The notes beneath the pieces are model-generated. The model searched no databases. It had not been told where the DNA came from and was given only the letters and a program-made list of their open reading frames with translations. A program made the position numbers and the translations under genes. Shown one piece after another: positions 4,301 to 56,061 of a stretch of DNA of 64,000 nucleotides (position 1 is the stretch's first letter; every line of letters starts with the position of its first letter). Location of the stretch: positions 8,903,001 through 8,967,000 of the forward strand of contig NC_065535.1 in NCBI RefSeq assembly GCF_932294415.1. Direction: 5' to 3'. The DNA is from Quercus robur. Lineage: Eukaryota; Streptophyta; Magnoliopsida; Fagales; Fagaceae.

Positions 4301-6372
4301 TGGAGCTCGAAATTCTTGTTTGGATTCCTCATCCACATCCTGCAACGTAGAGGCATTACAACATATGGCTAGTCCATCCCAAAATAAAGCAGCAAACACC
4401 CCTCTTGCACAAGTCTACAGACTATGCTACTAAAACTCAACTCAGCCAAGCCTTTATCACAACTAATTAGGATTTGGGATCAGCAGCAATATGAAACCCT
4501 TTTCACCATCAGTGCTATCAAAATTACATTCTAAAAGTTGCAACCAGGAAAAAAAAAAAAAAAGAGCCTAACTTCTGAGAAGCACCAACTCTAATGATCA
4601 CTACAATAACAAAAGACCTAATTTACGTGTCACACTTAGAGGGTTTAAAGTGATGACCAAAATGTTGTGCAATTATAATTGTATATTTCAAGCTTCTGAG
4701 ATGTTGCCATTCAACTTAACATTGCTTGCCTTCTTGCCAGATCACATATTCACATCAAGTCATCAACAAACACATTGCTCTTCTCAACAAAAAAAAAAAA
4801 AACACATTGCTCAATATAAATATAGGGAAACATCATTTACAAACTTCCAACAATTCTCCATATACGTACTAGCTATTAAAGCGTATATACAAGTGATTTT
4901 GGGACAAAACATTCAATCCAACAAAAACCTAATAAACCAAAGGTAGTGATTGTTGCACACAGTGAGTACATACACACTGAAATAGGAATTACCCTAAATG
5001 GCTAAATCAAATTCATGGATACATCAAATGTTTAACTTGTTGAGGTAAAAAAGAGTTCTGACATATGTAAAACCATGTATGCGCAATCCTTTATGGTATT
5101 AAATTAGTGTGCCTACACTTTTTTCATTTTACAACAGTTAAATTCATCAAGAATTTGTCGTGCCTTATAACTCACCATTTGGGAAAGTATACTTTTACGG
5201 CTGGAGTGATCTTTAATATCACTTGGTTCATCCATACATAGCTCATCTAAATTGCTCTTCATGTTAACAGGAAATTCAATCGTTTCTTCACTAGCCACTT
5301 TTACCACTCCATTTCCCCTATTTTCATCAATAGGACTACCTGAATTACAATCCACTACCACCTCCCTTACAAAACCATCATCGCCATCATCATCATCATC
5401 AAGAAAAGACATACTGTTTATAGCAACAGATCTGCCACACACAAAACAAGCATAAATACATTGACCAATATGTACATAAATATAAACCCAAAGTAAACTA
5501 CCCACTTTTTTGCAATCTCCAGCTTTCGTTTGCGAATCTTCTCCAAAACTGAAGATATCGGCTTCTGAACAAGCAGTACGGGTTTAAATGATGCATCTCT
5601 AGTTTCTAACAACAAAGACAAAATGGTAAAACTAATTAAATCCACTAAATCAAACTATACAAACAAGTTCAACAAAATAAAGGGTCTTAAACATAACTTT
5701 ATACCTCGTAAGAGTCTCTGAGACTCAGCACGAAGTTGCTTAAGATTGTCCCTTCTTTCCTGTAAAAATAGCAGCCACTATTAATTACAACAAAAACAAA
5801 AACAAAACCCAAAAGAGAGAGAGGGAAAGAAATACCTTTTTAGTCATTTTTTTGGTGGTGGCATCAAGATCAACAACACTCTCATCAACATTCTTCTTTT
5901 TTTTCTTCTTCGTCTTCTTGTTGTCTACATTTTCATCAAGCTCATCAGAACTACGTCGTTTCTTCACTGGCTCCTCAATTCTCAGATCCTCAGCCCCATC
6001 TCCCATCTCTTCGCTCGGATCGTCGCGTTTTGCGACGAAATCGTCACCCACAGAGTCAAACTCCAAAACCCTCTTAGTCTTAACCCCCAAACCATTTTCT
6101 TCTTCTTTTTCTTCTTCTTCGCCACCCAAACCAAAATCCAATTCATTTCCTCCATCAAAACCCTCCTCCGATTCCGATTCAGATCCCGCCCCCGACGGCG
6201 ACAATTCCTTCAACTCCTCCGAATCTTGGGCTTCAGATTTAGGGAAATCCAACAAAGGCGAGGAAGGCTCGGTGGAAACCCTAATTGCTTTCTTCAAGCG
6301 CTTCAGCTTTCTTTCCGAAGGAGAAATCTCTTCCGATTGTGGGAGTAGCTGAAAATCATCGTCGCTCTCCAT
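1312..6372 (-). CDS. Claspin/MRC1-like DNA replication checkpoint mediator
   Basis: Eleven exons on the minus strand fit GT-AG rules: 5836-6372, 5705-5759, 5506-5605, 5176-5431, 4286-4339, 3998-4137, 3013-3583, 2725-2856, 2533-2582, 1934-2119 and 1312-1560, giving about 776 residues. The ATG at 6372 opens MESDDDFQLL. The protein is very acidic. It has a Lys-rich stretch at the end of exon 1, a helical Arg/Lys segment (ERRDNLKQLRAESQRLLR, exon 2), and in exon 7 the FVDDEAEEEDDSDNDML block followed by LEELKDMIATGYEE. This is the pattern of the MRC1/claspin domain. The C-terminal end carries SSFLGRGSNHSLP and FIFGRDDSNSR. Claspin/Mrc1 proteins act at nuclear replication forks and relay ATR to checkpoint kinase. 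One junction is unsettled: exon 7 ends in phase 0 at its best donor (3012), while exon 8 needs one extra base. A micro-exon or another donor is possible. The domain call rests on recalled family features. Confidence 0.8.
1783..1804. repeat. Poly-C tract, 22 bases, in the last intron of the claspin-like gene
   Basis: An uninterrupted run of about 22 C on the plus strand (poly-G in the transcript), inside the intron between exons 10 and 11. Homopolymer length is error-prone in assemblies. Confidence 0.8.
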
Positions 6373-6403
6373 ATCTCTCTGTGATGAAATCAATGGAGAA
6401 CAA

Positions 6404-6412
6404 CTAGGGTTT
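6404..6412 (-). promoter_or_regulatory. Telo-box-like motif in the claspin-like 5' leader
   Basis: On the minus strand the sequence is AAACCCTAG, 32 bases upstream of the ATG at 6372. Telo-boxes (AAACCCTA) near the start of transcription are known in plant genes for cell growth, replication and ribosome production. Upstream, 6610-6630 carries TGGGCC-type Site II words. The motif is seen; its activity is inferred. Confidence 0.45.
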
Positions 6413-6744
6413 TTTGTCAGATCTATAATCTAATTTGTGAAATTCTAATTCTAATTCTAATTTTTTAGAAATGAAAATAGTATTACAGGTCGTGACTATA
6501 TTGGGTTTTTACTTTTAGGCGGCAAAAAGTTTTGAAATTTTTTAGGATTGGCGCAATTTTTAGGGTTAGGATTCGTATCGAACCGCCAAATTTACCGGCT
6601 TGTTTTGGACTTTGGGCCGGGCTGGGCCGTTGAGTCTGATGTGTGGTTGTGATTGAAACATGGGCCGGGATCATGTGCAGTGAACCAGAGGGATTTTGCA
6701 GTTTAGCACTGTGAGAGGAAAAATTATAATAAGTTAACATACGG

Positions 6745-9136: not shown

Positions 9137-9981
9137 GGCCAAAATTAGGAATTAACATTGGTTTTCAAACAATATAATTAATAGGCACTGTTTTCAAACT
9201 ATATTTTTTACTAGCATCTCGAGTCAAAGAGACTCGATTTAGGGCCTATAAATCGAGTTTTTAAAACTCAATTTTCCTGGTCTGATAATGTTTGATATTA
9301 CATTTTTTCCATGTGACGACCATCTAGAAATCAAGTCTTAGAGACTCGATTTATAAATTCCTTATATATTCAGCCTCCTTACACTACAACACCCCACCTT
9401 CTCATCAGACCAGAAACCAAAGAACCCATAGCCGCCCGATCCAGCCAGACCACGCCACCACCGTGCGCAACCCGGCAATGCGACCCAATCCGTGCAACCC
9501 AAGTAGCGCGACCGAGGCAACGTGACCAGGGTCACGCGACCCAAGCATCAACCCAGCGAGGTGAGGTGAGGTGAGCTCTCTCTCCTGGGATTCTTTCTCT
9601 CTCTGATCTGATGGGTTTTGGGGTTTTTATTTTTTTAATATGTATTTTAGGTGGTTGGTAGGGGTGGAATTTGGATTTTAGGTGGTTGTTAGGGGTGGAT
9701 TTGGTTGGATTTATGCTGAGTTGTTGGATTAAAGTTTTATAGAACAAATCGAGTATTTAAGCGTCGATATATAAATCGAGTCGACGCTTAAATACTTGAT
9801 TTCTAGGTGGACAAAGTGCCACCTCAAACCTTTTTAGAACATGAAAACCAACCCTCAAAGACTCGATTTATAGCCCAAAATCGACCCTCTAAGACTCAAG
9901 ATGTTAATAAAATATATACTTTTGAAACCACGCCTACTAATTGCATTGTTTGAAAAACACTGTTAATTCCGAATTTTGGCC
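9137..9981. mobile_element. Mutator-like MITE with 9-bp target-site duplication
   Basis: 845 bp with long terminal inverted repeats: left GGCCAAAATTAGGAATTAAC, right (reverse complement) GGCCAAAATTCGGAATTAAC, continuing to about 65 bases. Flanks CTGTAGAGG (9128-9136) and CTGTGGAGG (9982-9990) match at 8 of 9 positions, the Mutator-type duplication length. The interior has many CGAGT/ACTCG words, including the pair around 9720-9800 (CGAGTATTTAAGCG and CGCTTAAATACTTG). It is inserted in the GGT-rich interior of the Harbinger-like element. No coding capacity is seen. Confidence 0.75.
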
Positions 9982-12796: not shown

Positions 12797-12814
12797 TCTA
12801 GTATACGAGTAGAA

Positions 12815-13560
12815 GATTGCTTCCTTGGCCTTCCTCATGATTATGGTATTAGCTCCTCCTTTAATATTGAGGATCTAGTTGCTCATAAAAGCCCCACAGC
12901 TACTCTTGATACCCCTTTTGATGAGTCTTTGCCTAATCCTATTGATGCCCCTATTCCCACCCCTTTACCCTTAAATCTGCTCTATGCACATAAAGAATCT
13001 ATTGATGCTATTTTAGATGAGCAGATTATTTCTACTAGGGATGGAGGATTTCGCCGTTTCCTAGTTCGGTGGCGAGGGCAACTGGATTCTGATTGCACAT
13101 GGATTACTCAAGATGGCTACAGTGACTGGATCCAGACTTGTTGGAGTGCTATCAGAGTTCTTTAGATTTCCACTCAACGGGATTAAGTTCTTCTCACCCG
13201 GTGGGAGTTGGTGCGGACATAAGGTACAAGCCCCCAATTACACGCACGTATAGGAGGAAGAGCAAAAGAAGACGGTCCAACCTGTGGCCTTATGGATGGA
13301 GCCTATTAGTTATTGGGCTTGAGACTAAGTAAGATTGAGCATTTAATAATTAGGGTTTCTTTATGCATTTTTATTGTTAGCTATTTAAGCACTTTTTTAT
13401 TATTATTGTAAGACAATTTTGAGAATTAAAAAAAAAAAATGTGTGTTTCAATTTTTGCTTGGTGTTGACTCCAAGCAGCCCTTAGGTGCTGACTCCTAGG
13501 GTTTATTTTATGGTTTAATTGTTCCATTGAAATAGTGTGGTTGTCCTACGTCAGGGGGTC
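12815..13560 (+). mobile_element. Ty3/Gypsy chromovirus fossil fragment (integrase C-terminus with chromodomain)
   Basis: The plus strand encodes the end of a Gypsy polyprotein. A linker matches HDYGISSSFNIEDLVAHK, then a chromodomain-like segment reads IDAILDEQIISTRDG, FRRFLVRWRGQ and CTWITQD. This is followed by non-coding sequence with a purine-rich tract near 13258-13275. Only the 3' part of the element is present, so it is a broken fossil. It abuts the right edge of copy B. LTR boundaries could not be set. Confidence 0.7.
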
Positions 13561-14104: not shown

Positions 14105-17100
14105 CTAGCTAGCAAGATTCACTGCAATAGGACTCCTGACTGAGTGCTTGCCGTCTGACCAAATCATATCTCCAAATACATAGCCAGCTCTAGTGCCTAA
14201 TTTGGCAAAATTGGGCGTAATAATAACCTGGAAGGTCTTCTTTTCACCAGTTGTCTTGAACTCCAAAACTCTAGGTTTGACAGTGACGAAAACTGCAAAG
14301 GGTTGCCTGACACGCACATTGTATGTGCCTGGAGAACCAACGTTAGTTACTGTTCTAGTAAGAGTCACCTTGCGTGCTTGGATATTAGGAACTGCAATTG
14401 AAGGGTAGTTGAAGTCCTCTATACTGAAAGTATCAGGACATGAATAAGGCTTCTGAGAAAATAATCGGATCATGGTATCATTGTAGCCACGAGCACATAA
14501 GAAGTTCAAGTAATCTTCAGTGGTTGCATCATAAACGAGTCCAGGGTCCATTGCACGGTTTGGGTTCACATGTCCTGAACCATAGGCAAATGGTGTCGCT
14601 TCGACAGTGGATGAGTCCAAAATTGACTTCCTGGTGTTATCTAGGGTTTTTCCTGGATTTGAAAATGGAAATGGAAAGATTAGAGGTGGTGAACAAGAAT
14701 GTGCGACACTTCTCTGACTTCACAGCACGAAGGATTTGCAATATGAACTTAAAGAGAATGTTTACCTGTAGTCATGATTGCAGATTTGATAGCTGACGGA
14801 CTCCAGAGAGGGTACCGTGTTTTGAGAAGGCCAACAATGCCAGCAACATGAGGACATGACATGGAAGTGCCAGAGAGTACAGAGTATGGAAATCGGCGTT
14901 GGTCATTATCTAATCCAGTGGGACTTTCTGCTTCGGTGAAAGCAGCAAGTATGCTCACTCCTGGTCCAGTGATATCAGGCTGCAATTAACACAAAAAGTT
15001 AAGCACATAAGAGAATCTACACATGATGTATACTTGAAAATAATACCCAAAAAAAAAAAATGTTGAAGATTGAATTGCTTTGCAGACCTTGAGAATTGCT
15101 GGCTCAATGTTACTGGGTCCCCTAGATGAGAATGCAGCCATAAATGGTGCTGGCTTTACTCCTAATAGTGTCTTTACATCAGTAACGAAAGCAGTGGGGT
15201 TCCTATTACAAAGAAATATCCATTCATAACAATTATAACTTGTTAGAAAATAATCTTGGGTCTAACTAGTTCAAAAATGACTATAAGAAGTGAAAAAGAT
15301 AAGTACTTGGTTCTGTTAAGGTAAGCAAATATGATTTGGCCATCATTATAGTTTATATGTGAAGCAGGTAGCACATGAGGATCAGCTGAAAGATCATTCC
15401 CATCAGTCACATTATTAGCCAATATCATACCTACAGCACCTGCCCTATGACACTCACTGCCCTTTTCAACTCTTGCATTCTCCCCTCGTAGACACAACAC
15501 AATCTTGCCTTTCACCTTTTTTGGATCAAGACTTCCAGCATAACAAAGCAGACTACCAGGAAAGATTGAAAAAAAAAAAAAAAAAAAAAACTCAGTTTTA
15601 TATGGTAGAGAATTGAAGAAAGGTAATCATACAATTTGATATTACAAAATTATATGTGCTATATTGAGGACATGGAGTGGTTGTGCTTACGCGGATGTGG
15701 TGGATACGTTTGCAATATTGGCATTTGCAGCACTAATCAATGGATAGAACTTTCCACCTGGCACGCCTGAAGCTGAAAGACTTACTCCCTAACAATGAAA
15801 ATTAGGAATGTCACTACAACTGTTTTCATGTAATGAAAAAGGATAACTTACATATTTCTTGTCAAAAGTTGCATTTGGAGGAAATTTTTAAAAATTCTGG
15901 TCTTTTCCAGAACTAGTTTATCAATAATGCTCTCTTGAATGTGCATTATATGGAAAAAAAAAAATGGTAGGATTGAACTCCCACCTTATCCAACTGCAAC
16001 GCTAGAGGCAAAGCACCTTAGTATTAAGATTCAAATAATTGTTGCAAAATCAATGTAAGGGCATAGCTGAAAAAGCAAACAGCTCAGAACTTGGCTAGCC
16101 ACAACTCACTTTCGTGTTATACGCATACTGAAATTAATCCCTAGAATATTTTTTTACATGGACTGAAAAATAAGATACACAATACCTTGATTTGCTTCTT
16201 GTTGCCAAGAGAAACATAGTTAGCAAGATTCCTGTCTGTTGTACTAGCCCCAACTGTGAAAATCCATGGAGCCACATTTTCTACAGTCTCCAGAATTGGT
16301 CCAGAATTGCCAGCTGAGCAAACCACAGCAATATTATTCTTAACAGCATGGAAGGAACTTATTGATAGCCCATCCCTGAAAAATTCAGTGCTAGAGGCAC
16401 CAATAGACATTGAGAGCACATCAACACCATCACTTATTGCAGCATCAACGGCAGCCATGATATCTGCATCATAGCACCCGCCAGCAGACTCAGTTGCTGG
16501 CCAGCAGACCTTGTAGGCAGCCACGCGGGCTCTTGGTGATCCACCTGAAGCAGTGCCATTGGCAAAGCCAAGAATACTAGTGTGGGGAACAAAGTTACCA
16601 CCAGCGGTAGATAAGGTATGGGTGCCATGGCCCCCCAGATCACGAGCAGAGTTAAGGGATTCGTTAAGAGAAGTTTTTAATGCTGCAGCATAACCTTTGT
16701 TGAAGTACCGAACTCCAATCAACTTCCTGCATACATAACAATTAAAAATGGTGAAGCCGGGCCATATTCAAATGTGAACATATGAGAATAGAGAGCATAT
16801 AGGGAAGCCTTACTTAGTAGAAACACAAGCAAATACCAGATTGACTTAACAAGAATGACTAGAGGGTGATTTCTATCTAATCATATTACATTAGAAGCCA
16901 TTCCACGTGGTTTTTTGCTTTGAAAATTTACTTAAGCATTTAAGACATGATAATTCCCATGAAGCTAAATTAGCACACTTTGTTTTCAAGTGTGACAATG
17001 AACCACCTTAGTTCTTTCAATAGCTTTTCAAAATTTATGAACTCAATTTTGCTATCAAAATCGAAACTCTGTTTCTTTTTGGTTATCAACATAAACTTCT

Positions 17101-23095: not shown

Positions 23096-24015
23096 CACGC
23101 AAAATACATGTATGGACAAATCACTAACCCAGCCTAACCCAAACCAATCCGTGCAGGTCGGGTTGGGTTAAAAATTTTGTAACCTAATAAAATCATGAAA
23201 AAATGTAAAAACCATCCAACCCGATATACCCAGTTGAAGTGCATCACACTATCACTAAAGACTCCTACCTTGGCGGTACTCCTCAACAAGACTCCTACCA
23301 AATATTACTACCTTGGCAATACTTTGGTCTTTTAAATTAAAGATAGAATTGGATTCTTAAATACTGATATTTGTTTTTCTTGCATACCATACCGTGCGGC
23401 ATTCTTCCCTTCTATTCCCAATGTTTTTCAAATCCGTGATTATCAATGTACGTGTCGCACAAAATTCTGTTTATATTCATTATGTCTTTTAAAGTTCCAT
23501 GTTTTTCTTTTCAATTATGCAGAAATAGGTATTTATTTATATTAAAATTTTAAATATGCGAAGCTACAGTTTACAAACTTTATATATACTTCTCAAACAA
23601 TCCTAAATATTCAGCAGTCTAATTTGTTTGTAGACAAATGCAATTTTTACTGTAATTAGTCACATTAGGTTATTATTTTGGTTTATAGATTAATATACTT
23701 GTTAGGAACTGAATGCTAATATATGATCAGTTTTCAAGTCAGCGTTCATTGCGGATTTTATTGGGTTGCGGTGTTTGAAAATTAAACCAAAATTCACTTA
23801 CATATTTTTTTGTCCTCGGAGAAGTTTCTCTTTAGAAAATTTCAGTAGATTGTGTTTTTTGTCCTTGGATTGTATCATGTATGGCTTTTGTTTTTATTGG
23901 GTCTTGTTTGATTTAACTGATTTTTAATTTCACTGTTAAGGTTTCAAGTTTGTATATATAACGTAGTATTCAAAATTCATCTCCTCCTCATTAACAGGCA
24001 GTCAGATTGATTACA
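22945..24015. other. Intergenic and F-box gene promoter
   Basis: Contains a T run of about 30 bases near 23066-23095 and otherwise AT-rich unique-looking sequence. A TATA-like word (TATATATAA) at about 23951-23960 lies some 60 bases upstream of the ATG at 24016 and may be the F-box gene's TATA box. Nothing else is recognised. Confidence 0.4.
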
Positions 24016-25091
24016 ATGGGGGCAAATTCCCAAGAAAAGAAAAAACAAAAAGTGGACACACAGGTTGGATTTGAAGATCTATGTCCGGAACTTGTAGAAA
24101 AAATCCTCTCTCATATCCCCTTAAAACCTCGTACAAGATTGAAGTGTGTATCAAAGACTTGGTGTGATTTAATAACCTATCTTCGCCACTCGAGCTCCTT
24201 CAAATCTTCCACAAGCATAGTTTATGATCGTAGGAGACAAGACACAATGGGTGAAGCCATTTTCATCACATTTGAAGACCAAGGGGGAGTAACTTGGGGA
24301 CAAACCTCTCTCTCACTCAGTCACACATTCCATGGTGGCTTCTTGCTCGATTCTTGCAATGGCTTGCTCCTATATTTGGCGATAGATGAAGAACGTGTTA
24401 CAAAGGATGGAGAGGCTTGTACAAAGTTTGTTGTTTCAAACCCTGTTCTTAACCAATGTCTAGAAATTCCTTTCCATCAGAGATGGCACTGCTTAATTTT
24501 TGCAGCTCTAGTCTTTGATGGGTCACAAAAACACTTCAAGGTGATACATTACTCAACATACAGATTCAGCAAAGTAATCAAATGCTACATTTTTTCATCT
24601 GAAACAATGGAATGGAAAGAACATGAAGCAAGAGTTTTAAACTCCTCGTTTTCAAATGATACTAGGGGCTGCAGTGATGCTTCACTTTACTGGAAGGGAA
24701 AACTCTATAGCACATGGGGCAATAGCATGCTGGTTTATAATGTTGAAAAGGGTTTCTTTAATCTCGTGTCATTACCCAGAATAGGGCATTGGCTTAAGGA
24801 AGAATTATTGTGGGAGGCCGAAGGTCAATTACAATATTACATTACTGTCAATCAGGATTTGGAGGATTTCATATATGGACTTACGAAGACTTAAACTGCA
24901 AGTGGTTGCTCAAGCAGAGTGTGACAGATGATGAATTGAAGTTGCAAAATTGTGTGTTATTTCTTGATGATGAGGAAAAGATAAGGTTCCTAGAAAGTTC
25001 ACATATACATGTTGTTGCCTTTGATGACGACTTGCAAATACTATATCTTAAAATTTCGGAAGCCATCTTTTCTTATAGCCTAGAGACTTGA
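24016..25091 (+). CDS. F-box protein with a frame disruption in the C-terminal half
   Basis: The ATG at 24016 opens MGANSQEKKK. Residues about 19-60 (FEDLCPELVEKILSHIPLKP, CVSKTWCDLI) are a canonical F-box, which binds SKP1 in SCF ubiquitin ligases. An F-box-associated beta-propeller-type region follows (LLDSCNGLLL, FVVSNPVLNQCLEIP, LYWKGKLY). The frame runs to a stop at 24894. From about 24835 the adjacent frame continues the family pattern (CQSGFGGFHIWTYEDLNCKW and on to SYSLET, stop at 25089-25091). A small indel near 24835-24850 therefore separates the two parts; it fits loss of one base or gain of two. It may be real (pseudogene or truncated 293-aa protein) or a sequencing error. No intron with good splice sites bridges the shift. 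Function beyond SCF adaptor is unknown. Confidence 0.75.
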
Positions 25092-40109: not shown

Positions 40110-40874
40110 TTAACTTTTAGCTTGAAGTCCAAAAGAAGCTCGGTTGTCCTCAGGTTCACAGAACAAGATTTCCCAAATCTCAGAGAAGGCTACGACAATA
40201 ACTCCGTGATGTACGCGTGAATTCAAAGACAAAAAACAGTGCAAAAGTTCTTCCAAGTCTTTGGTCTCAAACATTTGCTTCTCCAGTATCATCTCCAACA
40301 TAGACCTCTTGAAATCCTCGTACGGATTCTCTGTCTTCTTCACCACCGCATAGCTCTCCCTCACTTTCCCATTCTCACGCACACTACTACACTCACTTTC
40401 CAAAGCATACCTCCTCAGCTTCCGACCCTTTTTCACTTCATCACTTTTACTTATTTCCTTCTCTTTACATTTCTCACTTACACTCACCAAAGACTCACTC
40501 ACAAACTCATTAGAACAATCCTTCGTAGAAACTGAGTTTTCTTTCTTCCACGTGTATTCTGCTGGAGATGATGATGATGACGACGACGATGATGATCCGG
40601 TGATGCTGCGGTACTGTGTGCATGGTTTTAATCGGCAGCCACAAGCGACTGATACGGTATTTGATGACACGTGGCGATTATTTGAGGGAGGAGGAGTGTG
40701 TTCTGGTGTTGAAGGTGGGGCTTTGAGGTTTGGGTAAATGATGTCTTGTGCTGTGGGGTTGACCGGAGATAGCCGGTATATTGCCGGCGGTGATGGATTG
40801 ACTGAGAGAGTGAGAAGGTGTTTGGGACGACAGAAATGGAAGAAAGGGAATTTAAGCTTGAAACGTTTATCCAT
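40110..40874 (-). CDS. OVATE family protein (transcriptional repressor)
   Basis: A single-exon gene of 254 residues, as is typical for this family. It opens MDKRFKLKFPFFHFCRPKHL; a related short motif is common at OFP N-termini. The middle is low-complexity, with a Ser run coded by a GAT/GAC-type repeat on the plus strand (40567-40596) and basic KKGRKLRR. The C-terminal OVATE domain covers about residues 185-240: ENPYEDFKRSMLEMILEKQM, DLEELLHCFLSLNSRVHHGV and IVVAFSEIWEILF. OVATE proteins are nuclear repressors that bind TALE homeodomain and TRM proteins and shape organs. The domain resembles the OFP6/7/8 group, but I would not assign a number. A TATA box lies 57 bases upstream. Confidence 0.93.
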   Translation of the reverse strand: MDKRFKLKFPFFHFCRPKHLLTLSVNPSPPAIYRLSPVNPTAQDIIYPNLKAPPSTPEHTPPPSNNRHVSSNTVSVACGCRLKPCTQYRSITGSSSSSSSSSSPAEYTWKKENSVSTKDCSNEFVSESLVSVSEKCKEKEISKSDEVKKGRKLRRYALESECSSVRENGKVRESYAVVKKTENPYEDFKRSMLEMILEKQMFETKDLEELLHCFLSLNSRVHHGVIVVAFSEIWEILFCEPEDNRASFGLQAKS

Positions 40875-40930
40875 GTCTGAAATGATTTTGAGGTTAATCA
40901 GCTAAGGCTGCTTAAGTTAAATATAGCGTG

Positions 40931-41138: not shown

Positions 41139-41442
41139 GGGATTTTATTAAAAAATAACTATAAAACTCAAACCATATTATTAGTTAGGTAAGGTTTGAA
41201 ACAAATTTCATTTCTAATAAATCGAGTCCAAAGGACTTGATTTTGCTCTGAGAAAATCGAGTGTGAGATACTCGATTTCCATTCCAAATGAGTATGGAAA
41301 TCGAGTGTGAGACACTTGATTTCTAAATGCAAATTCACTGGGCAAAATCAAATGTAGAAATCTCAAATTGTTAGAAACCAAATATGTTTGAAACGTTGCC
41401 TAAATATAGATTGAGTTTTATAGTTATTTTTTAATAAAAACC
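41139..41442. mobile_element. Short MITE, about 304 bp, CGAG-rich interior
   Basis: Terminal inverted repeats of about 60 bases: left GATTTTATTAAAAAATAACT, right in reverse GGTTTTTATTAAAAAATAAC, continuing through ATAAAACTCAA. The interior repeats AAATCGAGTGTGAGA and ACTCGATTTC words, like the Mutator-like relics at 6745-7972 and 9137-9981. No clear target duplication. Non-coding. Confidence 0.65.
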
Positions 41443-47541: not shown

Positions 47542-50320
47542 ATGAGGAAACTGTGTCCAAATTATGATAAGGAAGATGGGCTTGATACCGTGCTGGAGGT
47601 TCCTATACCTGAGGAAATGTTCACCAACATGGGCAGCAATGGCGCGCTGCGTTGGCAAAATTTGCGTGCTTTGATGAGAGCTCAAGGTGTAGATAAATCA
47701 ACACATCTTGCGGCTGCATCAAACAATGAATTTATGGCATTGCTAAAGCTTGTTGGTACTCCTCTCATCCCTTTTCAAGTCCAACCAGACCAACCGTTAA
47801 CCCGCCCCATCAAAGATTGTTCGATTGTAAGCATATATATAAACTTTTTTTCATTGTTTCAGAATAAAACATGCATTGTTGTATCATGGAGTTATACCAT
47901 TTTTCATATGTTCTCAATGATATGTAATCAAATTTACAAGTATGGAGGGTCTGATAAGTTTTTCTTTCCCAACTTTTGATGGTACACATTATGCAATGCT
48001 ACACAATTACCACCTTTTGGTCGTTAACATTATACTATTGGATGAGTCTTGAATCTATAATCCTATTTTATATTGGTCTAAATGATGGAACCAATGGCCA
48101 AGACCATTTTTTTTCTTTCTAGGAGGCCAAAATATGAGTGACCTCTGAAATTTCTAAATGAAATTTTGGCCGTATATAGGGGTGGGGGTTTTCAAAAGAG
48201 GATGGCATATATGGCACTCCTGGCCCATTGACGTATTTTATTGAAGTCTTTATATGTGTTAATATGAGGGTAAAGGACCATGATACATTGTTATTCTTGC
48301 TATTGGTAACCTATACAAAAATGTTACTCTTTTTTGTTTATTGCCACTTGTTTGAATGTTGTGAAATGCACTCATCATCAATCCATGGATGCCTAGTGTG
48401 TTTAGCTAGCTTATTTGCTGTAAGTTTATCAGCTTAAAGACGAGACAAAAGAGATTTAAGTAAATTTAGTTTACTTTATGCAAATAAGTCACTTTTTTCT
48501 CCCGTTTTAAGAAAATATGCAGCAAAAAGCACCACTAGAACCCTTCCAATTTACTGATTTATTTATTTAAATAAACCCTCCATCCCACCACATTAGTTTC
48601 TTAAAAGGATTCTTTACCCTTAATAATGCTTTTTCGAATGCCTTTCAATAGGTTTCCATGCATTTTTCTATTGAAAAAATAATAGGGTGGAAAGGATATT
48701 TTTTTCTTATTTGAGATAGAAATATTACTTTAGCTTAACTTAAGTATATGAATGTGAAGTTCCTTCTTTGAACCTTGACCTTTGCCTACCATTTCACAAG
48801 AACTTGTATTTGTAAAGTAAGCATCACGTTAATGGTGTGCAGTGACGAATGATTTTATTTTTGAAACACACTGATCACTACCTTCATTGATAGCTAGCTA
48901 ACAAAAAAAATTTCTGTTATACGAACAGGAAGCTTCTACAGCGAAATATATAGTACAACAGTATGTAGCCGCTACTGGGGGACAAGCAGCATTAAATTCA
49001 GTGAAAAGCATGTATGCAGTGGGACAAGTGAAGATGGTTGGGTCGGAAATGCACCAAGGTGATGTTAGTTTGCATACCAAAGGCAATTGTGAGGTCGGTG
49101 GATTCGTTTTATGGCAAAAGAACCCGGATTTGTGGTATTTGGAATTGGTTGTTTCTGGTTTCAAGGTCAGTGCAGGTAGTGATGGCAAGGTAGCTTGGAA
49201 TCAGTCTTCTTCTCAACCTTCTCATGCTAATAAAGGTCCTCCAAGGCCTCTGCGCAGGTTCTTCCAGGTATTTATATTATTGCTTTCAAACTAGAATTGG
49301 CCTTCATGGATCATCTTTCTAATGAAATATACCTAATGTATCTATGTTTTTATATATAGTCATATATGCATCTCATATTGTTGAGTAACTAGGGATGGCA
49401 ATGGAATTTAATGGCTTTTCTGATAGTAAGACTTAATAGTTTTTTAAAGCGGTTTGGGAAGGGTTTGGTTCTAAATTTTTAAGGCTTTAGAAAGAGTTTA
49501 GTTTTAGATGATTAATCTAGTGTACAAATGTATACTAATGCAAACAATATTTTAGTTCAATTTTACGTCAACTTGACTCAACCTGTTTGACATGAATCAC
49601 AGTAAGATAAATGGATGAGTTTGGAATAGAAATTTATATGAATTTAATATGTAAAATATTTTAAGGGTTTAGATTTGGAGATATTAATGTCATTCATATC
49701 AATAACTTATACAACATTTTCAAGCACCATCAAATATTGTACATATTCCTGTTGGACATACCTCAAAATGTGCTCCTTTGCATTTAACATGAATTATTTT
49801 CACTTTGTGGTCTCATCAGGGATTGGACCCCAGGTGTACAGCTAACTTGTTCCTAGATGCAGTGTGCATTGGAGAGAAAACCATAAACGATGAAGACTGT
49901 TTCATACTCAAGCTCGAGACTGCCCCACTTCTCCTCAAAGCACAATGTACACCCAACACTGAAATTGTCCACCACACAGTTTGGGGCTATTTCAGCCAAC
50001 GTACAGGACTCCTTGTCCAATTCGAGGACACAAAGCTAGTAAGAATGAAGTCCATTAAAGGAAATGATAGTGTGTTTTGGGAAACAAGCATGGAATCGAT
50101 GATCCAAGATTATAGATACATTGATGGGATTAATATAGCTCATGGTGGTAGAACTAATACCACGTTGTATAGGTATGGAGAGGCGTTTCATCACAGGCGG
50201 AAGATTGAGGAGTCCTGGAGAATCGAAGAGGTTGATTTTAATATTTGTGGTTTGTCCATGGATTGCTTTTTGCCTCCTTCTGACCTTAAGAGAGAACAAG
50301 ATGGAGAACAAGGAGTTTGA
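47542..50320 (+). CDS. DUF620 family protein
   Basis: Three exons join in frame: 47542-47826, 48929-49267 and 49820-50320, giving 374 residues. I chose the ATG at 47542 because family members I recall start M-R-x-LCPN; an in-frame ATG at 47530 would add four residues. Conserved blocks are MRKLCPNYDKEDGLDTVLEV, EEMFTNMGSNGALRWQNLRA, YVAATGGQAALNSVKSMYAV, GFVLWQKNPDLWYLELVVSG, GPPRPLRRFFQGLDPRCTAN and CFILKLET. The C-terminus holds VWGYFSQRTGLLVQFEDTKL, the HGG motif and SWRIEEVDFNICGLSMDCFL. The domain is plant-specific and of unknown biochemical role. No signal peptide or membrane span is visible. The gene looks intact. Confidence 0.92.
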
Positions 50321-53744: not shown

Positions 53745-53962
53745 GGCCCAACTGGGTACGACACATCGTGTCTCGACGCATATATCAAACATTCTTAAAA
53801 AAAATGGCGGCCCACTCAATGCACACATGAATAGAGATTGTGGATCACATCAGGCCCAAAGTAATTTTAACAACATCAAATCAAAACGCATCGTTTAATC
53901 AAGGTACATCAACAGCGTTCGTTGCAAAACCCTAATTCTTGTTAAGAAGCCACCTATTTAAA
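53745..53962 (+). promoter_or_regulatory. Promoter of the snoRNA cluster: three Site II motifs, telo-box, TATA-like box
   Basis: Site II words (GGCCCA, reverse of TGGGCC) occur at 53745-53750, 53809-53814 and 53853-53858. A telo-box AAACCCTAA is at 53927-53935 and a TATA-like TATTTAAA at 53955-53962, followed by a CT-rich leader. Site II plus telo-box is the known promoter signature of plant ribosomal-protein and snoRNA genes. The motifs are seen; activity is inferred. Confidence 0.65.
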
Positions 53963-54340
53963 ACCCTCGTATCCACACTCTCTCCCCACCTCTCTCTCTC
54001 AAGTCTCAACTTTCTTCAATTACATATCGAATTCTCTCTTTGCTTTCTTCAAAATCCATGGCTTTTCCTCGAATCGAATCGATCATTTGAGTGAGTCCTA
54101 ACAATTTCTTATTTTATTTTTTTTCTAATGAATGATTTTTGCATCTGTTTACCCTCTCCTCATAAGGCAAAATCTGAATGCTGGAGGAGATATAACAGGT
54201 GCAGAGAGTGAAAAGGTTGGCTTTACCAGCCCATGGCAGACTCTTTTGTCCATTGCCTTGGTGTCAAATGGTCCTTCCGATACTCTCATTCATTATTTAT
54301 TTATTTATTTTTTTATATATATGTAGAATATGTGAATTGA

Positions 54341-54429
54341 AATGGCAGGTGATGAATATATTTGACTAAACCGCTTATTGATATTCTGATTATAAACTGT
54401 GCTGTCAAAATCTTAAGTCTCTGATGCCT
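54341..54429 (+). ncRNA. Box C/D snoRNA 1 (guide to 25S rRNA, predicted U44)
   Basis: C box GTGATGA (54349-54355), D' box CTGA (54386-54389), D box CTGA (54421-54424), closed by GGCA (54344-54347) and TGCC (54425-54428). The stretch before D', CCGCTTATTGATAT (54371-54384), is complementary over 14 bases to AUAUCAAUAAGCGG near the 5' end of plant 25S rRNA. By the fifth-base rule the methylated base would be the U before CAAUAAGC, about U44 counting from the remembered 5' end. The rRNA sequence is from memory. No target was recognised for the D guide. Confidence 0.7.
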
Positions 54430-54507
54430 TTTTTGTTTTTCTGTTTATTTATTTAGGAGTATTTTGTTAATTGTTGATTTTGATTTTTTAAGAGCCCAAA
54501 TCTGCTT

Positions 54508-54593
54508 GGATGGCAAGTGATGAAAAAAACTCCTTATGCTTAACACTGAACTAAATGTGGACTAAAAACTTCGCTTATTATCTGATGCCATCC
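54508..54593 (+). ncRNA. Box C/D snoRNA 2 (guide to 25S rRNA, predicted U48)
   Basis: The terminal stem GGATGGCA (54508-54515) pairs perfectly with TGCCATCC (54586-54593). C box GTGATGA (54517-54523), D' CTGA (54546-54549), D CTGA (54582-54585). The D guide CTTCGCTTATT pairs with 25S AAUAAGCGGAG with one G-U pair, predicting U48. The D' guide TATGCTTAA pairs with UUAAGCAUA, only a few bases upstream in 25S, predicting about A37. This is the best-formed unit of the cluster. Confidence 0.8.
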
Positions 54594-54678
54594 TTGTTTG
54601 TCTTTTATTAGGATTAGATTATTTTTGTTATTATTATTATTATCTTTTTTTTTTTAAGTTTGAACATAGTTTGCTATG

Positions 54679-54767
54679 TAACCAATGATGTGAAAAAGCA
54701 GACGGGCGGTCTGAACTGATGCCATGTTGATTGTCTGCAATTTCCACTTTTGGAATATCTGAGGTGC
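54679..54767 (+). ncRNA. U43: Box C/D snoRNA 3, U43-like (18S rRNA guide)
   Basis: C box ATGATGT (54685-54691; last base off consensus), guide GACGGGCGGT (54701-54710) directly before CTGA (54711-54714), a C'-like TTGATTGT (about 54727-54734), and D box CTGA (54759-54762) with ACC/GGT closing the ends. The guide is complementary to ACCGCCCGUC near the 3' end of 18S rRNA, the target of U43 in human and snR70 in yeast (C1639 in yeast numbering, from memory). The GACGGGCGG core and the TGATTGT C' region resemble human U43. Extent is less certain than for the others. Confidence 0.65.
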
Positions 54768-54840
54768 TCTTTGATTATTTATGGATGTGTTAATTTTCTT
54801 TGTGTCACTTTTGTATTGTTGTCATATGAAATCGATACAT

Positions 54841-54921
54841 ACTGCTATGATGAAGTTGCTTAATTATGTCTGGACATATGAGACTTGTCTATGATCTTTA
54901 TATGCAATCTTGCTGAGCAGA
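54841..54921 (+). ncRNA. Box C/D snoRNA 4 (target not recognised)
   Basis: C box ATGATGA (54847-54853), D box CTGA (54913-54916), closed by CTGC (54842-54845) and GCAG (54917-54920). The D' box is degenerate (CTGG, about 54871). The guide before D (TTTATATGCAATCTTG) matches no rRNA stretch I can recall. It may be an orphan or target a snRNA. The start of this unit is repeated at about 54938-54961. Confidence 0.55.
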
Positions 54922-54937
54922 ATTGCACATCTCTAAA

Positions 54938-54961
54938 TTATATGATGAAGTTGCTTAATTA
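54938..54961 (+). repeat. Partial duplicate of the 5' half of snoRNA 4
   Basis: TATGATGAAGTTGCTTAATTA recurs 95 bases after its first occurrence at 54846. A C box is present, but no D box at the right distance closed by a stem, so this looks like a truncated tandem copy. Confidence 0.5.
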
Positions 54962-55043
54962 GTTACATTTAAGATTTTACTTGACATATTTGCATTCTTG
55001 TTCTTTTGAACATCTTAGTTGACACATTTTTTTTAATTGACTT

Positions 55044-55123
55044 GTGGCAAGTGATGAATTTGATCTTATCCTACACACTGATGATCTGTGTTGACAACAA
55101 CTCCGCTTATTATCTGATGCCAC
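55044..55123 (+). ncRNA. Box C/D snoRNA 5 (two 25S guides, predicted U48 and a central site)
   Basis: The stem GTGGCA (55044-55049) pairs with TGCCAC (55118-55123). C box GTGATGA (55051-55057), D' CTGA (55078-55081), C' TGATGAT (55079-55085), D CTGA (55114-55117). The D guide CTCCGCTTATT pairs perfectly with 25S AAUAAGCGGAG and predicts U48, like snoRNA 2. The D' guide CTTATCCTACAC pairs over 12 bases with GUGUAGGAUAAG, a 25S stretch recalled from the plant sequence (AGAGGUGUAGGAUAAGUGGG), predicting the U of GGUGU. Confidence 0.8.
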
Positions 55124-56061
55124 TTTAGTTTGTTTTTCACATTGTGATTCAGTTCGGAGTTTTTTTAATGCTTATTTTGCATGTATATTGTTTTCTGAGG
55201 TAACTTAATGTGAACCAGTTCATTCATAATTTCAAGATCACTATTCACTTTGAGGATAGATGAGTTCTATTTTCCAATTTTGGAGGCCATGATGCCCCCT
55301 TGCTAGTTTAATTTTTTTTGTTCTAAGAGCTTTCACATCGACAATATTTTTAGCCAAATTTAGTTCCTTTTGTTGGTTTAGGTAATCTACTATTCATATA
55401 TAGCTAACATCAGACTCAATACTCTATCACTATTCTTTTTCGATAATATTCTCTCAACAAATATCAATATTTTTCATCCTATCTTTTCCCAAAATATTGA
55501 TTTTTATCTTTGTAAATAAAAAAACCACACCACAAACTCATTATAAAAAAACAGAAACATGAAGAAGACCTCCTCCAAATTGTTGGAGTGTTGGTCCTTT
55601 CTAGCCAAATACTGTGCATTTTTTTGCTACTTCTAGCATGCTGGGACTTGTTGCGAATGATCTAAGCGATCTCTTGTTTGAATTGCACACAAGAAAAGCA
55701 TTAATTAGTTTTAAATGTTGTTACTAATCATAATTGCGCAATATTATTGTATGTGTCAGTTGTCTATGGTTCCCTCTAAAAAAAAAAAAAAACTCAGGTG
55801 CTGTGTGTTCGTTTTTCTATTTTTTAATTTGTGTTTTTTTTTTCTTTCCCGATCTTCTCCATTAACTTTTCTATATGCATCTTTTTCCATTCTATGTACC
55901 TATATGTACAACAAAAAGCATTTGATGCCATTCTTGTTGGGAAGACTGTGAGCTTAATTAAGGAGTGCATTTCCATTCTTTCTTCATACTACTTAATCCA
56001 GTCCAGGGGTTATTTGAGATTAGTGAGCTTCACTCTTATAGAATTCTAAACATCATTGAAA
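55124..56061. other. Downstream of the snoRNA cluster, no further unit recognised
   Basis: AT-rich. No other C/D pair with a closing stem was found. Short frames near 55715-56049 are low complexity and unsupported. Confidence 0.4.

What the first reader, a model, noticed from the sequence alone, without database searches (positions are those of the whole stretch)
54341..55123. Cluster of five box C/D snoRNA genes without a protein-coding host
Five units with C and D boxes, four of them with clear closing stems, lie head to tail within 0.8 kb. No protein-coding frame crosses them. A Site II/telo-box promoter lies upstream. Automated gene annotation usually misses such loci.
Basis: partly seen in the sequence, partly recalled or inferred. 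Interest (0 to 1): 0.75.

Follow-up and report, generated by a model that had tools for sequence, protein, structure and literature searches.

The report
Plant box C/D snoRNA gene cluster
This is an ordinary plant gene cluster that appears to encode five small guide RNAs which direct the cell to add methyl groups to fixed positions of its ribosomal RNA.

Summary
54341-55124 carries five head-to-tail box C/D snoRNA units on the + strand, behind a Site II/telo-box/TATA-like promoter. Rfam calls two of them snoR16 above the gathering score. An exact C box + D box + closing-stem scan gives four hits in 64 kb on both strands, all here. Guides read by the D+5 rule identify four units: of 204 + strand CTGA boxes, only four reach a pairing score of 10 with the rRNA I held (18S, 5.8S and the first 400 nt of 25S, taken to be yeast), and all four lie in this cluster. 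They point at known plant methylation sites: 25S U44 (unit 1, SnoR120 site), 25S U48 (units 2 and 5, snoR16) and 18S C1645 (unit 3, U43 site). Unit 4 is weaker: 9 bp to 18S C1219, the SnoR166 site. The snoR16-U43 linkage is already described in Arabidopsis and rice (PMC5122169). So this is a new member of a known kind: a known type of polycistronic cluster with extra units. Expression was not testable. Interest is low.

The parts
53745..53961 (+). Promoter elements: Site II (TGGGCY, reverse orientation) at 53745, 53809, 53853; telo-box AAACCCTA at 53927; TATTTAA at 53955
   Evidence: Motif scan; Site II and telo-box definitions from PMC4660826 (passages)
54341..54430 (+). Unit 1: box C/D snoRNA; C box 54349-54355, D' 54386-54389, D 54421-54424, 4-bp stem GGCA/TGCC; D' guide 54371-54384 pairs 14 bp with 25S at U44 (SnoR120 site of Arabidopsis)
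   Evidence: Table 1 of PMC8053127
54508..54593 (+). Unit 2: snoR16 copy; C box 54517-54523, D' 54546-54549, D 54582-54585, 8-bp stem; D guide 54569-54579 pairs 11 bp (one G-U) with 25S at U48; its D' guide differs from the family consensus
   Evidence: Rfam RF00296 75.2 bits (alignment)
54681..54765 (+). Unit 3: U43-type box C/D snoRNA; C box 54685-54691 (one mismatch), D' 54711-54714, D 54759-54762, 3-bp stem; D' guide 54701-54710 pairs 10 bp with 18S at C1639 (yeast) = C1645 (Arabidopsis)
   Evidence: Tables 1 and 2 of PMC8053127; stem and C box read
54842..54920 (+). Unit 4: box C/D unit of uncertain family; C box 54847-54853, D 54913-54916, stem CTGC/GCAG; degenerate D' ATGA 54878-54881, guide 54867-54875 pairs 9 bp with 18S at C1215 (yeast) = C1219 (Arabidopsis, SnoR166 site)
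   Evidence: best Rfam match snoR1 24.1 bits, below its cut-off of 49
54941..54961 (+). 21-nt exact repeat of the C-box end of unit 4 (54846-54866), no CTGA behind it up to 55040: probably a relic of a partial duplication
55043..55124 (+). Unit 5: snoR16 copy; C box 55051-55057, D' 55078-55081, D 55114-55117, 6-bp stem; D guide 55101-55111 pairs 11 bp with 25S at U48; D' guide as in the family consensus (25S U2456 is assigned to SnoR16.1 in Arabidopsis; that pairing was not tested here)
   Evidence: Rfam RF00296 82.5 bits (alignment); Table 1 of PMC8053127
54140..54290 (+). Leader region that folds into two hairpins (161-nt frame z -4.5; fixed 150-nt frame only z -2.2); membership in the cluster's function not shown
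   Evidence: no Rfam match near a gathering score

Best explanation
A polycistronic plant box C/D snoRNA gene. RNA polymerase II would transcribe one precursor from the Site II/telo-box promoter, and nucleases would cut out five small RNAs of about 79-86 nt. Each would bind the box C/D core proteins including the methyltransferase fibrillarin and lead it by base pairing to the rRNA nucleotide opposite the fifth position upstream of box D or D'. Predicted sites in Arabidopsis numbering: unit 1, 25S U44; units 2 and 5, 25S U48 (unit 5 probably also 25S U2456); unit 3, 18S C1645; unit 4, tentatively 18S C1219. Shown here: boxes, stems, snoR16 family membership of two units, guide complementarity at known methylation sites, promoter motifs. 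Inferred from what is known of plant snoRNA clusters: transcription, processing, snoRNP assembly and methylation.
For: Rfam snoR16 at 82.5 and 75.2 bits against a gathering score of 45. 4 of 4 exact C/D/stem hits of the 64 kb lie here; 0 of 500 shuffles of the region reach 4. 4 of 204 + strand CTGA boxes have a D+5 guide with a score of at least 10 (pairs, a G-U counting half) to the rRNA tested, all four in the cluster; they fall on 25S U44, 25S U48 (twice) and 18S C1645, all methylated in Arabidopsis (PMC8053127 Table 1). snoR16-U43 linkage is published for Arabidopsis and rice (PMC5122169 section 6). Telo-box/Site II elements are highly enriched in promoters of plant polycistronic snoRNA genes (PMC4660826 passages).
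Against: No expression data. Units 1, 3 and 4 pass no Rfam gathering score. Unit 3 has a mismatched C box and a 3-bp stem. The unit 4 target rests on 9 bp beside a degenerate D' box. The rRNA used was not the plant's own, and most of 25S was not available, so the U2456 guide was not tested by pairing. Chance matches occur: the - strand gave 3 of 183 CTGA boxes scoring at least 10, one of them 12; 22 of 204 on + and 15 of 183 on - score at least 9; and inside the units, boxes with one mismatch also gave 10.5 (unit 1, CTAA at 54366, 18S 789) and 9.0 (unit 3, TTGA at 54727, 18S 879), and the D' box of unit 2 gave 9.5 (18S 61) and 9.0 (25S 39).
Confidence: 0.96

Rival explanations
1. The units sit in introns or exons of a spliced non-coding host transcript rather than in a simple unspliced polycistronic precursor.
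For: A donor-like GTGAGT at 54091 and acceptor-like AG sites in the leader can be read from the sequence (my reading; no splice predictor was run).
Against: Close spacing of the units and the promoter type fit the polycistronic form; [quoted passage not shown]
Confidence: 0.1
2. A partly decayed cluster: snoR16 is real, but units 3 and 4 are no longer processed.
For: Unit 3 has a mismatched C box and a weak stem; unit 4 has a degenerate D' box; a partial copy of unit 4 without a D box lies next to it.
Against: The unit 3 guide still has 10 perfect pairs to a site methylated in Arabidopsis, yeast and human; unit 4 has exact C and D boxes and a 4-bp stem.
Confidence: 0.15
3. Chance motif matches in AT-rich spacer DNA.
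For: C and D boxes are short; isolated guide-like matches of 10-12 bp occur elsewhere in the window.
Against: Shuffles, Rfam scores and the coincidence of guides with known methylation sites.
Confidence: 0.005

Closest known systems
snoR16.1-U43.1 cluster of Arabidopsis thaliana and U43a-snoR16 (cluster 66) of rice (PMC5122169 section 6, read)
   Same: A snoR16 unit and a unit for the U43 site side by side.
   Different: Here a second snoR16, a unit for the 25S U44 site and unit 4 are also present. The published cluster sequences were not seen, so gene order and their full content were not compared.
Rfam RF00296 snoR16
   Same: Units 2 and 5 match over the whole model.
   Different: Unit 2 departs from the consensus at the D' guide (alignment).
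SnoR120, SnoR166 and U43 of Arabidopsis (PMC8053127 Table 1)
   Same: Units 1, 4 and 3 have guides for the sites assigned to these (25S U44, 18S C1219, 18S C1645).
   Different: Same predicted target only; the Arabidopsis sequences were not seen, so common descent is untested.

Membership tests
Box C/D snoRNA | C box RTGATGA and D box CTGA | tested here: met
   Exact in units 1, 2, 4 and 5; one C-box mismatch in unit 3
Box C/D snoRNA | Terminal stem that brings C and D together | tested here: met
   4, 8, 4 and 6 bp in units 1, 2, 4 and 5 (lengths read); unit 3 only 3 bp and below the scan threshold, inconclusive for that unit
Box C/D snoRNA | Antisense element next to D or D' placing a methylated rRNA nucleotide at D+5 | tested here: met
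   Units 1, 2, 3 and 5 with 10-14 bp; unit 4 with 9 bp at a degenerate D', suggestive only; tested against rRNA taken to be yeast
Box C/D snoRNA | Stable small nucleolar RNA bound to fibrillarin | not testable with these tools
   No expression or binding data for this plant
snoR16 (RF00296) | Score above the gathering cut-off | tested here: met
   Units 2 and 5
U43 | Guide for 18S C1645 (yeast C1639) | tested here: met
   Unit 3 D' guide, 10 bp
U43 | Sequence homology to known U43 genes | tested here: inconclusive
   No Rfam match near a gathering score at unit 3; published plant U43 sequences were not seen. Unit 3 is called U43-type by target only
SnoR120 | Guide for 25S U44 | tested here: met
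   Unit 1 D' guide, 14 bp
SnoR120 | Sequence homology to SnoR120 | not tested
   The sequence of SnoR120 was not available
H/ACA snoRNA (leader hairpins 54140-54290) | H box ANANNA between the two hairpins and ACA after the second | tested here: not met
   Neither found on reading the sequence by eye
Plant polycistronic snoRNA gene | Telo-box plus Site II promoter upstream of the cluster | tested here: met
Plant polycistronic snoRNA gene | One precursor transcript processed into several snoRNAs | not testable with these tools
   No transcript data

The most novel reading that the evidence does not exclude
Unit 1 and the snoR16 units are tandem duplicates whose guide moved by four rRNA nucleotides (U48 to U44), so that one cluster makes guides that compete for the same stretch of 25S; and the structured leader is a further, undescribed stable RNA of the cluster.
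Probability: 0.12. Interest if true: 0.35.

Novelty: new member of a known kind. Interest (0 to 1): 0.15.

Why it matters
It adds a well-supported snoRNA cluster to a plant genome in a stretch without sizeable reading frames, and it suggests that the snoR16-U43 linkage was extended in this plant by local duplication. The finding changes no general view.

Tried and rejected
Rfam on the leader and on units 3-4 gave nothing above a gathering score. H/ACA snoRNA and microRNA precursor readings of the leader hairpins were set aside for lack of H and ACA boxes (by eye) and of an Rfam match. In a fixed 150-nt frame the leader is not exceptional for this window: z -2.2, while 72 of 852 + strand frames are below -2 (30 shuffles each). 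Folding single units gave z -1.3, -3.4, -1.1, -1.0 and -2.2 for units 1-5, of little weight, as box C/D RNAs have little structure beyond the closing stem. A search of phage records with the cluster found nothing, and three scans of viral contigs for eukaryotic rRNA found nothing. The held library has no copy of Brown 2001 or Qu 2001, so the original cluster papers were not seen; SnoR120 with 'snoRNA' occurs in one held paper. Of PMC7464842 I saw passages only, of no use here; the HID1 search and one search were seen as listings.

In the methylation-site control I carried Arabidopsis sites to the 18S of L002 by base-identity offsets and kept 30 of the 35 sites of 18S; U123, A162, U213, G246 and A1758 were dropped as ambiguous, the two 5.8S sites and 25S U144 and G399 were not used, and of 25S only U44 and U48 were. 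The offset of 4 around C1219 fits 8 of 8 sites between 978 and 1275; the next best of the nine offsets tried fits 5 of 8. In that control a score of 9 or more at a listed site was reached by 11 of 2920 near-CTGA boxes on +, 5 of them in the cluster, and by 3 of 2859 on -; six such boxes were tested in unit 4.

Full report
What is there. The stretch 54341-55124 holds five box C/D units in one orientation. Rfam release 15 places snoR16 on 54509-54592 (75.2 bits) and 55043-55124 (82.5 bits), gathering score 45, over the whole model; besides these the 64 kb window has one more gathering match, SNORD36 (30.7 bits, cut-off 30), on the same bases as the first snoR16. With permissive thresholds the other units match snoRNA models only weakly.

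Is it more than chance? A scan for an exact RTGATGA, a CTGA 45-105 nt on and a closing stem found four places in 64 kb on both strands: units 1, 2, 4 and 5. Shuffles of 54300-55200 that keep dinucleotides gave a mean of 0.03, maximum 1, none of 500 reaching four. With one C-box mismatch allowed, the window has 11 on the + and 1 on the - strand, four of them in the cluster (shuffle mean 0.19, maximum 3); with one mismatch and a stricter stem the region has two and 3 of 500 shuffles reach that. Unit 3 stays below the stem threshold in each setting.

What do the units aim at? No plant rRNA was held, so I used eukaryotic rDNA found in a bacterial record (L002, which I take for yeast by recall): 18S and 5.8S whole and the first 400 nt of 25S. 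Reading 18 nt upstream of each CTGA by the D+5 rule, with a G-U pair counting half and at most one allowed, four of 204 + strand boxes score at least 10, and all four are in the cluster. Unit 1 D': 14 bp, position 46 of the 25S stretch that begins at L002:4601. Unit 2 D: 11 bp with one G-U, and unit 5 D: 11 bp, both position 50. Unit 3 D': 10 bp, 18S C1639. On the - strand 3 of 183 boxes reached 10, one of them 12, though the exact box scan has no hit on that strand. Some boxes with one mismatch inside the units also pair by chance, up to a score of 10.5 beside CTAA at 54366. The two 25S sites are four nucleotides apart, as are U44 and U48 of Arabidopsis, which are assigned to SnoR120 and SnoR16; that they are the same nucleotides rests on this spacing and on my recalled Arabidopsis 25S start. 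C1639 of yeast is C1645 of Arabidopsis, assigned to U43 (Tables 1 and 2 of PMC8053127; passages and section 13 seen).

Unit 4 has exact boxes and a 4-bp stem but no guide scoring 10 to the rRNA tested. Its best is 9 bp beside a degenerate D' box (ATGA) to C1215 of this 18S, which corresponds to C1219 of Arabidopsis, the SnoR166 site; an offset of 4 fits eight of eight sites between 978 and 1275. Outside the cluster 9 of about 5,770 near-CTGA boxes score 9 or more at a listed site (6 on +, 3 on -); with six boxes tested in unit 4 this gives roughly a 1% chance, judged after the fact. The same paper reports three guides beside degenerate D' boxes and counts interactions from nine pairs up. I treat the assignment as suggestive.

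The two snoR16 copies differ: unit 5 keeps the consensus D' guide, unit 2 does not (alignment). In Arabidopsis 25S U2456 is assigned to SnoR16.1. Units 1, 2 and 5 share their C-box and D-box surroundings, and the D-box end and flank of unit 1 resemble those of unit 2 (71% over 70 nt, E 0.04), which hints at tandem duplication. A 21-nt exact copy of the start of unit 4 at 54941 has no CTGA behind it up to 55040.

Surroundings. Upstream lie three Site II elements, a telo-box and a TATA-like TATTTAA, the promoter type of plant polycistronic snoRNA genes (PMC4660826, passages). ATG-started ORFs of 30 aa or more that touch the units are 33 and 37 aa. The leader 54140-54290 folds into two hairpins (z -4.5 in a chosen frame; -2.2 in a fixed frame); no Rfam family fits.

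Compared with what is known. PMC5122169 (section 6) lists the U43a-snoR16 cluster of rice and the snoR16.1-U43.1 cluster of Arabidopsis. This locus is best read as a relative of that cluster with extra units; the published sequences were not seen, so this rests on content, not on alignment. It is a new member of a known kind, not a new kind.

Noticed in passing
54140-54290: The leader of the cluster folds into two adjacent hairpins; no Rfam family, no H or ACA box by eye. Arabidopsis HID1 is a precedent for a non-coding RNA that shares a polycistronic cluster with snoRNAs (PMC8053127, passage).
   Followed up: partly
54941-54961: Exact 21-nt copy of the start of unit 4 without a CTGA behind it up to 55040, a likely relic of partial duplication.
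   Followed up: partly
55920-55938: 17 of 19 bases match the 3' end of the snoR16 copy at 54580-54598, with TTGA in place of the D box; E 0.5 in the window self-search, so a relic or chance.
   Followed up: no
6276-6700: The only other place in the window where 300-nt frames hold at least two Site II elements and a telo-box; next to a - strand reading frame (5785-6429) without a Pfam match.
   Followed up: no
41140-41442: Inverted repeat with 40-nt arms, 93% complementary, around an inner hairpin: looks like a small foldback transposable element.
   Followed up: no
9746-9802: 22-nt inverted repeat sharing the motif AAATCGAGT with the inner hairpin at 41254-41322.
   Followed up: no
16141-16767 (-), 23995-24894 (+), 40110-40901 (-), 49793-50320 (+), 12797-13165 (+): 5 of 10 reading frames tested have Pfam matches: subtilase, F-box, Ovate, DUF620 and chromo domain (the last perhaps a retroelement remnant).
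   Followed up: partly
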